Of a stretch of DNA of 64,000 nt, positions 40,846-47,014 are shown piece by piece. The DNA is from Labrenzia sp. R4_2 (GTDB taxonomy: Bacteria; Pseudomonadota; Alphaproteobacteria; Rhizobiales; Stappiaceae), in contig NZ_JAGHRJ010000001.1 in NCBI RefSeq assembly GCF_017743865.1, forward strand, positions 186,001 to 250,000, given 5' to 3'. Numbering within the stretch: the stretch's first letter is position 1; each line of letters begins with the position of its first letter. Both the position numbers and the translations under genes were made by a program. The notes below the pieces were generated by a model. That model did not search any database. It was not told where the DNA came from and was given only the letters and a program-made list of their open reading frames with translations.

Positions 40846-42504
40846 ATGACCGATCAATCCCTGCCTCCGCTTGACCTTTCGCAAGAGTTTGTCGAGGCGG
40901 CCACCAAGTCCAAAGCGTGGCCGTTCGAAGAAGCGCGAAAACTGGTCAAACGGATCGAGAAGCGGGATCCGCAAAAACCGGTTCTGTTCGAAACAGGTTA
41001 CGGCCCGTCCGGGCTGCCGCATATCGGTACTTTCGGTGAAGTTGCCCGCACGACGATGGTGCGCACCGCGTTCCGCCTACTGACCGAAGACAAGATCCCA
41101 ACCCGGTTGATCTGCTTCTCCGATGATATGGACGGCATGCGGAAAATCCCGGAAAACGTTCCGGACAGAGCCGCGCTGGAGCCGTATTTGCAGATGCCGC
41201 TCACTGTCGTGCCGAACCCGTTCGGCGGCGACTATGAGAGCTTTGGACATCATAACAACGCCATGCTGCGGCGGTTCCTCGACACCTTTGGCTTTGATTA
41301 TGAGTTCGCGAGTGCGACCGACTACTACAAGTCGGGCAAGTTCGACGACATTCTTCTGCGGGCTGCAGAACGCTATCAGAAGCTGATGGATGTGATGTTG
41401 CCAACGCTTGGCGAAGAACGCCGGGCGACCTACTCGCCGTTCCTTCCGATCTCGCCGACCTCTGGTCGGGTTCTTTATGTCCCGATGAAAGAGGTCAATG
41501 CCAAGGATGGCACCATCACTTTTGAGGATGAAGACGGCCAGGACGTGACCGTGCCGGTCACTGGCGGCAACGTGAAGCTTCAGTGGAAGCCGGACTTTGG
41601 TGCGCGCTGGGCGGCGCTTGACGTCGATTTTGAAATGTTCGGCAAGGACCACGGTCCGAACATGGCGGTCTACGACAAGATCTGTAAGGTCCTCGGCGGA
41701 ACGCCGCCGGAGCATTACGTCTATGAGCTGTTTCTGGACGACAAGGGCGAGAAGATCTCCAAGTCGAAAGGCAATGGTTTGTCCATCGATGAATGGCTCA
41801 CCTACGCGCCTACGGAAAGCCTGGCGCTTTACATGTTTCAGAAACCGCGCACGGCGAAGCGGATGTATTTCGATGTGATCCCGAAGGCGGTCGACGAATA
41901 CTATACGTTCGCGCAGAAATACGAGCAGATGCCGGTTGAGCAGAAACTGCAAAACCCGGCATGGCACATTCACTCCGGCGACATCCCTAAGATCGACATG
42001 CCGGTGCCGTTTGCCATGTTGCTCAACTTGGTGTCCGCATCCAACGCAGACAGCAAGGATGTGCTTTGGGCCTTCATTTCCCGTTATGCGCCAGGCGTAA
42101 CAGCTGAGACCCATCCGGAGCTTGACGCGCTGGTTGGTTACGCAATCCGTTATTTCGACGATTTTGTGAAACCGACCAAGTCCTTCAAGACACCGGATGA
42201 AACTGAGCGTCAGGCACTTGAGCAACTGGATGCGAAACTGGCGGCTCTGCCGGCCGATGCCGACAGCGCAACGATCCAGGACGCGGTTCTGGATGTAGCA
42301 AGGGCGATCGAGCGATACCAGGATCACAAAAAAAAGGGACCAGATGGTGGACCGGGTGTGTCCGTTGCCTGGTTCTCAGCGCTTTATCAGTTGCTGTTGG
42401 GACAGGAAAAAGGCCCGCGTTTTGGATCTTTTGTCGCGCTCTACGGGATTTCCGAAACCCGCGACATGATCTCAAAAGCGCTCGCCGGAACGATTGCGGA
42501 CTAG
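40846..42504 (+). CDS. lysK: Class I lysyl-tRNA synthetase
   Basis: 552-residue archaeal-type (class I) Lys[19 protein letters not shown] carries the HIGH-equivalent, and [20 protein letters not shown] carries KMSKS. Charges tRNA-Lys; class I LysRS replaces the class II enzyme in most alphaproteobacteria. A strong terminator follows at 42526-42556. Confidence 0.97.
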
Positions 42505-43129: not shown

Positions 43130-45124
43130 TCAGTCCGCATCGTCAAAGAATTGAATCCCGGTCATCCCGGCATCAGTCCAGACAACATGTCCAAGGCGTT
43201 CCTGATCATCGATCATCACGCTCACAGTCATGCCCTTTTCAGCGCCGATCAGTCCCTTCAGTGCCGCGCCTGTGCGGGAGATATTTTCAATTTCAACAGT
43301 CTGTGTTCTGCCATCGACCCGGGCTTGGGTAACCGCAGTCGTATCCTTTCGTGGAGATCGCCTAGCTTCGGCATCCTGGAGCTCATTTTCCATTGCTTTG
43401 GCCAGCAGAACCAACTTGTCCAACACAGCGTTACTCGCCGTATCCAAGTCTTTGAGCGCGTCAAATGCATCCTGCCTGCGGCCTTCCTCCGCCGCCAGAA
43501 GCGCCCGATGTCCAGCGTCATGAACTTCCTTGTGCGGAGCTACGAGGGCCTTGAAAGCTGGATGGTTGCGGACGCGGTCATTTTTGATGCCATCATACCA
43601 TTTGCCAAGTCGGCAATGATGGTGATCAGGCATCACAGAAGATCCCCAATCGTCATGTCCGGTCACAGTATCGACGACCCGCTTTTTGAAGAGAACATGA
43701 TCAATCCGTGCCATTTCAACCAATGACCGGTCACTGTCCGCGTCGAAGAAGCGCTTTGCATTATCACTGAAGTGGGTGTTGCAATGCTGGAGCGTGGTTT
43801 GCATTTCGCCGAGCTGCAGGTCGGTGTTGCGATTGGATTCCGCGACATTCGATACATTTCTTGCGATCTCGTGGCTGGCTTCTTTTTGCTGACGCAAAAT
43901 ATCCGTGATCTGGATAGCCCGCTCAGAAACATTTCCAACCATCGTGTCAATCGACTGCATGATTTCATTGGCAGACGCGATTGCGCTTTCACCGTTTTGA
44001 ACGGCGCCTTCTGATCCCTGAATTGCAGTTTGGATTGTTGCCATTCCTGCAGTCAGCGCATCAATGCGCTGTGCAATGTCTTCCGTTGCCTTGCCTGTTT
44101 GTGAAGCGAGTGTCTTCACCTCGGCGGCCACAACCGCGAAGCCCTTGCCAGACTCCCCCGCACGGGCGGCCTCAATTGTTGCGTTGAGTGCTAACAAATT
44201 CGTCTGATCGGCGATCGATTGGATGACCGACAGGAATTCGCTGATCTGGTTTGCCGCTGTGTTGAGGTCTGAGAGGCTTTGCGAGGTTTCGCGGGAAGTC
44301 CGGGAGATGTCACCAATCGCTTGGGACACCGCAGACATTTTGTTGAGACCGTCTTTGGCTGCGTCGTTTGTCTGTGCAGCTTCCTGTGCTGCGCCTTCAC
44401 TGTTTTCCGAGATCTGCTCGATGGAAGCAACCAGCTGATCGGCCGCTGCCGAAATGGACTCCCCGTTCACATTCGCTTCTTGTGTGTTTCGAGACAAAAG
44501 AGCCATCGCCATAACGATTTCGTTGAGCTCAACGATGTTATCAGCCGTTATCTGCAGATTGCGGAGACCGGTGGTCTCCCGTTCTTCAATGCCATCCAGC
44601 CGATGTTTTTCGGTTTCGAAGGCGCGTTGCGCAAGAATCATGTCCAGAAAAAAACGGGTCACAAGCTCCTGAATGGATGAGGTCATGGCGCTCTGCGAGA
44701 AGCGATGTTTGCGAATGAGCACCGGGATGGCTTCGTTCAACATGCGGCCAAAGGCCGACATCAGCCATTCCGCCTGCAAGCCGATCCGCACATGAGCCTG
44801 ACCGATACGCGCTGCCTGACCAATGAATTCAAGATCGGGATCATTGTTGAAAATATAGTCCCAATGCTTGCTCTGGGCATTTTTCAAGGGCTTTGTGTTG
44901 GCCGCGTTTGATCCCATTTTTGCTCGCAGCTCTTCGTTTGCAAGCATGTCATTGTAGAACCGGTCCAGCATGTCGGGCATGGCAGGTTGGAGATCCTTCC
45001 AGACTTTTTTTGACGCATGCGTGCTGCTGCCCTTTGGCGTCATAAAGTCGATGAACTTGCTGAGATTGGCTGTTTCGGAAGGCTTTACGGGCTTCGGCAT
45101 CGACATTTTTGCTAAGTCTTTCAC
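43130..45124 (-). CDS. Cytoplasmic chemoreceptor with globin, MCP, CZB and PilZ domains
   Basis: 664 residues (from GTG 45124; ATG 45106 is an alternative), no membrane span. Domains in order: globin-coupled sensor at about 20-180 with the likely proximal His111 in [14 protein letters not shown]; methyl-accepting signalling domain at about 215-450 with tip [20 protein letters not shown]; chemoreceptor zinc-binding (CZB) at about 470-585 with His476, CRLGKWY at Cys504 and HKEVH (His531, His535, exactly 27 after Cys504); PilZ at 587-664 with R588-x3-R592 and NISRTG 614-619. Should sense oxygen, zinc/oxidant and cyclic di-GMP and signal to CheA. No che genes in the window. Confidence 0.93.
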
Positions 45125-45253: not shown

Positions 45254-46138
45254 TTATTCAACTTGAGGCTGAATATCTGTATTGCCAGAGTTCGTTGTCG
45301 TGCCGTCTGTGAGTGTCCGCAGGCTCCAATCAACAACGTCTGGCGCGAGTTGCTCCAGATCGATTTCGTTGAGGGCGCTGGGTTCAGCCCAATCTGCTTG
45401 CGGAAGATCTGTCAACCACTCGGTCTGCCACTGGCCGATCTCCTTGGCTTTGGCCGCTTCTGCGAGTTCCTTGAATTCATCCGGGGCAGTTTCCAGCGGC
45501 GTTGCCCAGCCAAAGCGGACCAATTGCGAACTCAGATCGATTGCGCCTCTGGTGCAGACTGCCGAGATTTCCTGAGGGGCCAGGTCTTCTTGTTTGACAC
45601 AGCTGACTTTCAAGCGCCGGATGAGACCTCGCAGAAAGGTTCTGGCCCGCATGCCGCAGGGCCACGAGGCACCCAGTTCTGTCTTGCAGGTGGCTTCCAG
45701 ATCCAGCGATTCAATATGGGCGAGGCGCACTGTCAGGCGTCCGGACTTCAGATGTCCTGCATCCGGGACTTCAACGCGGACGAGTTCCAGCGGACCATCC
45801 GGGACTGGTTCAACCGGCGGGTTCAGGAGTTCTAACAGCCGTTCGGAGGGCCCGACACGGGTAAGCCTGCCGGTGACCTGGGGTGCCGACACACCGTCCG
45901 GTGAAACATCCCGAAGGGCATCTGGAGGGGACGCGGCAGCTTGTTCTTCCTGCGAAGGCACGCTCGGAGCAAGCGGAGCTGCATCATTTTCAGGTTTGGC
46001 CGCCATAACCGGTTCGGTTTGAGAAGAGACGGTCTCCGGCTCAGGTATAGCTGGCGGTTCTGCAATAATGAGCCACGCCACCGCGCCGGCGAAAGCACCG
46101 ACGACTGAAAGTGGGACGACCAGTGAGCGGATTTTCAT
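45254..46138 (-). CDS. Thermonuclease-like (SNase-fold) protein, probably inactive
   Basis: 294 residues: N-terminal membrane anchor (LVVPLSVVGAFAGAVAWLII), a Pro/Glu/Ala-rich linker at 28-110, and an SNase-like domain at about 125-250 (TVRLAHIESLDLEATCKTE, PCGMRARTFLRGLI, SSQLVRFGWATPL). The catalytic triad of nuclease (Arg35, Glu43, Arg87) is not kept: the GIDAPE-type loop reads HIESLD and the second Arg is missing. Four Cys could form disulfides in the periplasm. Confidence 0.7.
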   Translation of the reverse strand: MKIRSLVVPLSVVGAFAGAVAWLIIAEPPAIPEPETVSSQTEPVMAAKPENDAAPLAPSVPSQEEQAAASPPDALRDVSPDGVSAPQVTGRLTRVGPSERLLELLNPPVEPVPDGPLELVRVEVPDAGHLKSGRLTVRLAHIESLDLEATCKTELGASWPCGMRARTFLRGLIRRLKVSCVKQEDLAPQEISAVCTRGAIDLSSQLVRFGWATPLETAPDEFKELAEAAKAKEIGQWQTEWLTDLPQADWAEPSALNEIDLEQLAPDVVDWSLRTLTDGTTTNSGNTDIQPQVE

Positions 46139-46156: not shown

Positions 46157-46795
46157 TTATTGGCTCGCCCAGATGATACGGGCTGTCCACTCAATTGCCG
46201 AGTGGAGAAGCGCCGCCTTCTCCGGATTGTCCCCGATTGTCTGGACCTGCAAGGTTTTCGGTGTCCGTTTCAAAAGCGTGTAGACGGCAAGACCGCCTTC
46301 TGAGGGTTTTAACACGATCCGGTCACCGCGCCGGACCGCAGCGGACGGCGCAACAACAATCAGGTCACCTTCACGATAAAGCGGCAGCAAGGCGTCGCCA
46401 GACACTTCAAGGGCAAAAATGTTCTGGGTGTGGTCAGTCGGAAAAACAATTGTTTCCCAGTGTTCTCCCGTCGGGCGGCCCGTGGTGTCGAACGCGTTTT
46501 CCTCATGCACGTTGGAAAAGCCAGCAACCGGCAGCGCAGAAAGGGTTGTGGACGGCCTTTGTTCTGAGGCTTCCACCCGACCGGCAAAGCTTTTCAGGCT
46601 TTCGCCGGTGGCCTCAAGGATCTTTGCAAGGGATTCGGTCGATGGCCACCGGGGACGCCCATCACCGGCAAAGCGTTTCGAGCGGTTAAAGGTGGTCGGA
46701 TCCAGTCCGGCTCTTTTCGCCAGGCCTGACGGCGTCATCTCGTTGTAAGAGGCCAATGCATCAATGGCAGCCCATACTTTTTCGTGCGACAGCAT
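46157..46795 (-). CDS. HTH transcriptional repressor with S24/LexA-like C-terminal domain
   Basis: 212 residues: N-terminal HTH (TPSGLAKRAGLDPTTFNRSK) and a C-terminal S24 fold at about 120-212. The peptidase loop reads VSGDALLPLYREGD: Ala135 replaces the catalytic Ser of the usual GDSM/GMSM, so self-cleavage is unlikely. The start at 46795 (MLSHEKVWAAIDAL) follows GGAGACGGG. No phage genes nearby. Confidence 0.82.
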   Translation of the reverse strand: MLSHEKVWAAIDALASYNEMTPSGLAKRAGLDPTTFNRSKRFAGDGRPRWPSTESLAKILEATGESLKSFAGRVEASEQRPSTTLSALPVAGFSNVHEENAFDTTGRPTGEHWETIVFPTDHTQNIFALEVSGDALLPLYREGDLIVVAPSAAVRRGDRIVLKPSEGGLAVYTLLKRTPKTLQVQTIGDNPEKAALLHSAIEWTARIIWASQ

Positions 46796-47014
46796 CGGGG
46801 CCCGTCTCCCACCACCAATCAAACAGGAATAAATACCTTTTTTCCGAGTATGGTGAGTGCAGTTTTTTCTGTCAAAAAGCAAGAATGGCAGCACAGACAA
46901 GGGTGCACTGCTTGTCTGTCCCGACGAGCATGAGTAGTGTCCGCCGAAATTATCCTAGACAACGGACTTGTCTTACTCCGATGGACCCAACCCCGCATGG
47001 AGCGAAACCAGCGC

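What the first reader, a model, noticed from the sequence alone, without database searches (positions are those of the whole stretch)
43130..45124. Four-sensor-module soluble chemoreceptor: globin, MCP, CZB and PilZ
All four domains show their key residues (His111; MCP tip; Cys504-x26-HxxxH with His476; RxxxR and NxSxxG). Globin-coupled MCPs, CZB-MCPs and PilZ-MCPs are each known, but all in one chain is unusual as far as I know. It would integrate oxygen, zinc/hypochlorite and cyclic di-GMP into one chemotaxis output, sensible for an oxygen-dependent phototroph choosing between swimming and attachment.
Basis: partly seen in the sequence, partly recalled or inferred. Interest (0 to 1): 0.7.

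Follow-up and report, generated by a model that had tools for sequence, protein, structure and literature searches.

The report
Soluble oxygen–zinc–c-di-GMP chemotaxis receptor
This gene of a Roseibium-type bacterium encodes a cytoplasmic chemotaxis receptor that carries an oxygen-type haem sensor, a zinc/redox sensor and a c-di-GMP sensor on one rod; the same combination recurs in related bacteria, but I found no experimental study of it.

Summary
The ORF at 43130-45124 (-) is one chain with protoglobin, MCP, CZB and PilZ domains, all above Pfam's cut-offs. Key residues are conserved: proximal His in 57 of 58 homologues, the CZB His/Cys/His/His in 58 of 58, both PilZ motifs in all 34 homologues with that region. 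A PilZ-only model best matches PilZ structures.

The architecture is not unique. The four-domain form occurs in 34 sampled genomes of the same order: 17 of 87 in the family, 19 of 397 in the order, 2 shared. None was seen outside the order in capped listings. PilZ was gained, then lost several times (7 changes). Globin among CZB-protein sensors was catalogued before and PilZ chemoreceptors are characterised; no paper I opened describes all four together.

An extra: its MCP hairpin is 21 residues longer per arm than in 27 of the genome's 28 other receptors found (one undetermined), yet only one CheA/CheW system was found.

Most likely it is a cytoplasmic aero/redox-taxis receptor gated by c-di-GMP. 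Ligand binding and output are inferred. It is a new variant of a known kind.

The parts
43130..45124 (-). whole receptor gene, 664 aa from GTG at 45124 (658 aa from the likelier ATG at 45106); stop included
44603..45064 (-). protoglobin domain, residues 21-174; Y57 = HemAT chain position 70, H111 = HemAT chain position 123 (proximal His)
43838..44377 (-). MCP signalling hairpin, residues 250-429 (Pfam match); canonical tip [18 protein letters not shown]; each arm 21 residues longer than in 27 of 28 other MCPs of the genome
43499..43699 (-). CZB domain, residues 476-542; H476, C504, H531, H535
43142..43363 (-). PilZ domain, residues 588-661 (Pfam match); R588-x3-R592 and N614xSxxG

Best explanation
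It is a soluble chemoreceptor in which three intracellular inputs act on one kinase-control rod. Shown by sequence: an N-terminal globin with the proximal His and a HemAT-like distal Tyr; an MCP hairpin with the canonical tip; a C-terminal CZB with its His/Cys/His/His set; a PilZ domain with intact c-di-GMP motifs; no membrane span. Inferred: it is a dimer; the globin binds O2 at haem and acts on the N-terminal arm; CZB loads or loses zinc with redox state and acts on the C-terminal arm, as in TlpD/McpA; c-di-GMP, bound by the RxxxR linker behind the last CZB helix, sets how strongly the receptor answers, as proposed for Azospirillum Tlp1 and Aer. The net effect would be aero/redox taxis gated by the swim-or-settle messenger. 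PilZ would be a tuner rather than the core, since homologues with globin and CZB exist without it. The output presumably goes to the one CheA found in the genome, although its hairpin is six heptads longer overall than that of its co-resident receptors.
For: All four domains above the Pfam cut-off. Profile match of the globin region to HemAT, E 9.5e-23, with H111 and Y57 at HemAT chain positions 123 and 70. Zinc-ligand residues invariant in 58 of 58 homologues (the 58 were chosen to cover globin to CZB, so presence of the domains is by selection, conservation of the residues is not). PilZ motif columns conserved in 34 of 34 at 29% median identity, and a fold match to PilZ structures. The genome has 51 GGDEF matches and 10 PilZ matches (9 over the cut-off), so c-di-GMP signalling is likely present, and a CheA and a CheW by Pfam beside genes that look by eye like CheY, CheB and CheR. 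Precedents: Cbp1 binds c-di-GMP by RxxxR (PMC6454048, passages); Aer lacking PilZ is altered in aerotaxis (PMC6406031, abstract and sections 5, 9, 12); the CZB receptor McpA mediates attraction to O2 (PMC13370339, preprint, passages).
Against: No haem, zinc or c-di-GMP binding was tested. The PilZ hit is weak by itself (24.1 bits against 22.5), and only 25 of the 58 homologues reach E 0.01 for PilZ in Pfam against 34 by alignment. The CZB profile match to DgcZ in PDB is weak, E 0.0082. The full-length model is poor (mean pLDDT 54, pTM 0.26), so the geometry of coupling is conjecture. I recognised no che gene among the neighbouring ORFs. The hairpin length differs from the other receptors, and receptors of the same length are said to form arrays (PMC8429497, passages), which argues against simple entry into the main array. 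PilZ is absent in 24 of 58 homologues.
Confidence: 0.6

Rival explanations
1. It is a plain TlpD-like CZB redox/zinc receptor with a globin as N-terminal sensor, and the PilZ is a passive or non-binding remnant being lost.
For: PilZ absent in 24 of 58 homologues, 7 changes of state on the tree; the PilZ profile score is just above the cut-off.
Against: Where PilZ is present, R, R, D/N, S, G are kept in 34 of 34 at 29% median pairwise identity; a decaying domain would be expected to lose them.
Confidence: 0.15
2. It does not serve swimming but an alternative output: as a length-class outlier it forms its own cytoplasmic cluster and controls something else (for example attachment or c-di-GMP turnover), using CheA/CheW outside the flagellar array.
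For: Hairpin arms 21 residues longer than in 27 of 28 other MCPs of the genome; in S. meliloti the odd-length 40H receptor mcpS belongs to a separate system thought not to control flagella (PMC8429497, passages).
Against: Only one CheA/CheW cluster was found in this genome. A second system is present in 4 of 13 genomes of the genus with the receptor and in 3 of 14 without, so there is no tie to a dedicated kinase.
Confidence: 0.2
3. The globin senses another ligand (NO, CO, sulphide, or haem redox state) rather than O2.
For: Globin-coupled sensors may respond to other gases such as CO or HCN (PMC8846402, passages). Sequence cannot tell which ligand signals.
Against: A Tyr at the HemAT distal position (57 of 58) and the proximal His (57 of 58) are kept, and the best PDB match is the aerotaxis transducer HemAT.
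Confidence: 0.15

Closest known systems
HemAT (globin-coupled aerotaxis transducer)
   Same: N-terminal globin with proximal His and distal Tyr at matching positions; soluble MCP (recalled).
   Different: HemAT as known to me (recalled) has no CZB and no PilZ.
TlpD-like CZB chemoreceptors (H. pylori TlpD, Salmonella McpA)
   Same: Soluble MCP with CZB having three His and one Cys; TlpD also has an N-terminal PAS domain (PMC12871147, section 8). Globin is listed among the domains of CZB proteins in PMC8262984 (passages).
   Different: Globin instead of PAS at the N-terminus, and a PilZ after CZB; the word PilZ does not occur in the main text of PMC8262984.
PilZ chemoreceptors: Azospirillum Tlp1 and Aer, Azorhizobium Cbp1
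   Same: C-terminal PilZ on an MCP with c-di-GMP-binding residues; Cbp1 is also soluble.
   Different: [quoted passage not shown] none is described with globin or CZB in the passages read.
Protoglobin-GGDEF-EAL-CZB proteins of Acidithiobacillus
   Same: Protoglobin and CZB in one chain (PMC6416229, passages).
   Different: The output is c-di-GMP turnover, not an MCP.

Membership tests
Methyl-accepting chemotaxis proteins | MCP signalling domain with conserved tip | tested here: met
   Pfam 6.3e-36; tip columns invariant in 58 homologues
Methyl-accepting chemotaxis proteins | couples to CheA/CheW and is methylated by CheR | not testable with these tools
   genome has a CheA and a CheW; interaction not shown
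Globin-coupled sensors (HemAT type) | protoglobin domain with proximal His | tested here: met
   His kept in 57 of 58
Globin-coupled sensors (HemAT type) | haem binding and O2 response | not testable with these tools
   needs purified protein
CZB (TlpD-like) soluble chemoreceptors | CZB with one Cys and three His | tested here: met
   58 of 58. C504, H531, H535 lie on the Cys and HxxxH of 3t9o in a weak match; H476 lies outside that match and rests on Pfam and conservation
CZB (TlpD-like) soluble chemoreceptors | no transmembrane segment | tested here: met
   maximum 19-residue hydropathy 1.28; none over 1.6 in 58 homologues
PilZ c-di-GMP receptors | PilZ beta-barrel | tested here: met
   Pfam above cut-off; model matches PilZ structures at Z up to 10.7, unrelated barrels at 8.1
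PilZ c-di-GMP receptors | RxxxR and D/NxSxxG motifs | tested here: met
   34 of 34
PilZ c-di-GMP receptors | c-di-GMP binding | not testable with these tools
   needs ITC or thermal shift

The most novel reading that the evidence does not exclude
A lone, longer-rod soluble receptor that reads oxygen, zinc/redox state and c-di-GMP at one end and forms its own cytoplasmic signalling units on the same, single CheA that serves the shorter receptors of the cell: a case of unlike-length receptors sharing one kinase, with c-di-GMP deciding whether the oxygen signal counts.
Probability: 0.3. Interest if true: 0.65.

Novelty: new variant of a known kind. Interest (0 to 1): 0.42.

Why it matters
If the inference holds, one protein joins the oxygen, redox and c-di-GMP inputs to swimming. 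Nature has also run a control experiment: PilZ-less versions sit beside PilZ-bearing ones (for example L022 within the window's own clade), so the effect of c-di-GMP on an otherwise similar receptor can be measured. The length mismatch with a single CheA makes the rule that receptors of one length share an array directly testable.

Tried and rejected
Considered and set aside: chance PilZ match (set aside on motif conservation and fold); frameshift or fusion artefact (set aside, since the chain recurs in 34 genomes); a dedicated second Che system for this receptor (no association: 4 of 13 with the receptor, 3 of 14 without; the 13 include G018, whose version lacks PilZ; the 14 are only some of the genus genomes without a match at 1e-50).

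Weak or negative results: the PilZ family profile against PDB sequences gave nothing below E 0.019; Foldseek gave no hit at E <= 0.001, best 2.6e-3. Full-length AlphaFold was poor, probably because only four sequences were used; I kept to window and the search for related loci sequences as that tool demands. Tblastn with the window's PilZ hit 19 of 65 loci printed and so missed 15 of the 34 PilZ regions; PilZ presence was therefore scored on the family alignment, and the lack of a downstream PilZ remnant in PilZ-less loci is weak evidence.

Limits of the counts: the survey calls scored only some candidates per genome (up to 26, 13, 3, 3 and 8), so counts are lower bounds; the list was cut. The 58 homologues were picked from 91 loci then held as matches running from globin to CZB, duplicates L009-L011 left out; globin MCPs without CZB and MCP-CZB proteins without globin were thus left out. 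L025 was read from an internal ATG (643 aa).

Length class: one search left out L130 and L131. Motif spacing puts the C-arm motif at +82 in 25 of 28 others (no motif found in L108, L117, L131) and the N-arm motif at -60 in 23 of 28, against +103 and -81 in the window receptor; L131 shows neither motif and stays undetermined. In one search the local blastp match of L131 has 21 residues more than the window in the stretch aligned, and several other local matches placed their gaps differently. Heptad class names are uncertain (83 residues from anchor to tip in the window, 76 in Tsr, 62 in L107); 40H/34H would fit but rests on recall.

Literature absence rests in an open-access library; of the papers they listed I did not open PMC4331095, PMC11404848, PMC6194562, PMC10101095 and PMC9600515.

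Full report
WHAT IS THERE. The - strand ORF 43130-45124 encodes 664 aa from GTG, or 658 aa from an ATG six codons in, the size also found in homologues L014-L020. Pfam finds protoglobin, MCPsignal, CZB and PilZ in that order, each above its cut-off; PilZ only narrowly, 24.1 bits against 22.5. The globin family profile finds HemAT best in PDB (E 9.5e-23), and H111 and Y57 fall on HemAT chain positions 123 and 70. CZB has H476, C504, H531 and H535; the last three align with the Cys and HxxxH of DgcZ 3t9o in a weak match, E 0.0082. The PilZ region modelled alone (mean pLDDT 77) matches PilZ structures: the first 20 rows, Z 10.7 to 8.2, are PilZ-containing proteins (some recognised from recall), about half solved with c-di-GMP; unrelated barrels begin at Z 8.1. 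No membrane span is indicated.

HOW WIDESPREAD. Searching whole genomes with the protein, I counted a homologue as four-domain when the match ran from the globin (query start at or before 62) into PilZ (query end at or beyond 658). This gave 12 of 45 genomes in the genus, 17 of 87 in the family and 19 of 397 drawn from the order, in 8 families (two genomes shared, so 34 distinct). Only part of the candidates per genome was scored, so these are lower bounds. In 385 genomes drawn from the class 8 matched at 1e-65: the window's genome and G166, both of this order, have the four-domain form, and in the other 6 the listed matches end by residue 604. A CZB-PilZ profile over 398 genomes of the phylum matched 138; in the listed matches (the list was cut) it spanned both domains only in the same two. 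The tandem thus looks confined to this order in what was seen; rarer cases elsewhere are not excluded. The genus holds Roseibium sediminicola (L010 has the coordinates of G019), so the organism is Roseibium-like.

CONSERVATION AND HISTORY. I chose 58 homologues whose match runs from globin to CZB; Pfam confirms globin, MCP and CZB in 58 of 58 at E 0.01 and PilZ in 25. By alignment 34 have a PilZ region, and all 34 keep R, R, D/N, S, G at the motif columns with median pairwise identity 29%. One homologue, L081, has lost the proximal His. A quick maximum-likelihood tree without the PilZ columns needs 7 changes of PilZ state, against a mean of 18.7 for shuffled labels (SH-aLRT only, open forks and several long branches); one gain and six losses would fit, as would two gains and five losses. 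PilZ-less rows include L022, in the window's own clade, where the gene ends after CZB with no PilZ match downstream. MCP-CZB-PilZ proteins with no protoglobin match exist too: L094, L092 (PilZ just under the cut-off) and, by its match to residue 659 only, L095.

A SECOND ODDITY. Aligned with 26 other MCPs of the same genome, the window receptor and six family members have 21 more residues in each arm of the hairpin, three heptads per arm. A motif count without alignment agrees: C-arm motif at +103 and N-arm motif at -81 from the tip in the window receptor, +82 in 25 of 28 others and -60 in 23 of 28; 27 of 28 show at least one of the two, and L131 shows neither. The segment between residues 215 and 450 is 236 aa in 58 of 58 homologues. 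In the further set all 18 MCPs that end before CZB (two of them controls from this genome) are 21 shorter in each arm, and all 18 whose match covers the CZB region and whose hairpin is complete have the window's length; CZB was confirmed by Pfam in 9 of these 18, and L096 is cut by its contig end. In this genome the window receptor is the only one of 29 MCPs with CZB. The genome shows one CheW gene and one CheA-type gene with two CheW domains and a REC domain. Of 27 genomes of the genus, all have a frame with two CheW domains plus a CheW gene (REC was tested in this genome only), and 7 have a second system: 4 of 13 with the receptor, 3 of 14 without. Receptors of equal length are said to build arrays together (PMC8429497, passages), though Shewanella McpA may be an exception (PMC9855816, passages). 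How this receptor shares the kinase is therefore open.

MECHANISM. Shown: domain order, intact ligand residues, no membrane span, conserved tip, GGDEF (51 matches) and PilZ (10 matches) proteins in the genome. Inferred: both ends of the hairpin meet at the sensor end, so globin acts on the N-terminal arm and CZB and PilZ on the C-terminal arm; c-di-GMP ordering the RxxxR linker behind the last CZB helix would alter the set-point. Precedents: Cbp1 binds c-di-GMP, KD about 15 uM, with binding lost in R320A (PMC6454048, passages); Aer lacking PilZ is altered in aerotaxis (PMC6406031, abstract and sections 5, 9, 12); McpA, a CZB receptor, mediates attraction to O2 sources (PMC13370339, preprint, passages); in TlpD the zinc site is linked to the kinase tip over 140 A (PMC12871147, preprint, abstract and sections 8, 12).

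KNOWN OR NEW. Globin is named among the domains of CZB proteins in the 2021 survey of 10,140 CZB sequences, whose main text does not contain the word PilZ (PMC8262984, passages). Protoglobin with CZB also occurs in GGDEF-EAL proteins (PMC6416229, passages). Searches for globin, CZB, PilZ and chemoreceptor terms listed no paper that I could see to describe the four-domain receptor; five listed papers were not opened (named in Tried and rejected). I file it as a new variant of a known kind, seen in one bacterial order in these samples.

Noticed in passing
   Followed up: partly
L174:7669-10473 (G000:C21): The only CheA found in the genome has two CheW domains and a C-terminal REC domain; by eye a CtrA-like regulator and a ChpT-like protein lie nearby (labels recalled, not tested).
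   Followed up: partly
G000:C11 around 945233-947000 (L175, L176) and L125: Two more PilZ-bearing MCPs in this genome: an MCP-PilZ protein without apparent membrane span in the part scanned and with a further C-terminal part, and a dCache-HAMP-MCP-PilZ receptor.
   Followed up: partly
L081: A homologue whose globin has lost the proximal His and distal Tyr while the CZB residues stay: a possible haem-free version.
   Followed up: no
L022, L048: PilZ-less homologues nested among PilZ-bearing ones, a natural comparison for the role of PilZ.
   Followed up: partly
window 40846-42504, 45254-46138, 46157-46900: Neighbours: a protein that reads like a lysyl-tRNA synthetase (by eye), an SNase-like protein just below the Pfam cut-off and an S24-peptidase protein; I recognised no che gene among them.
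   Followed up: partly
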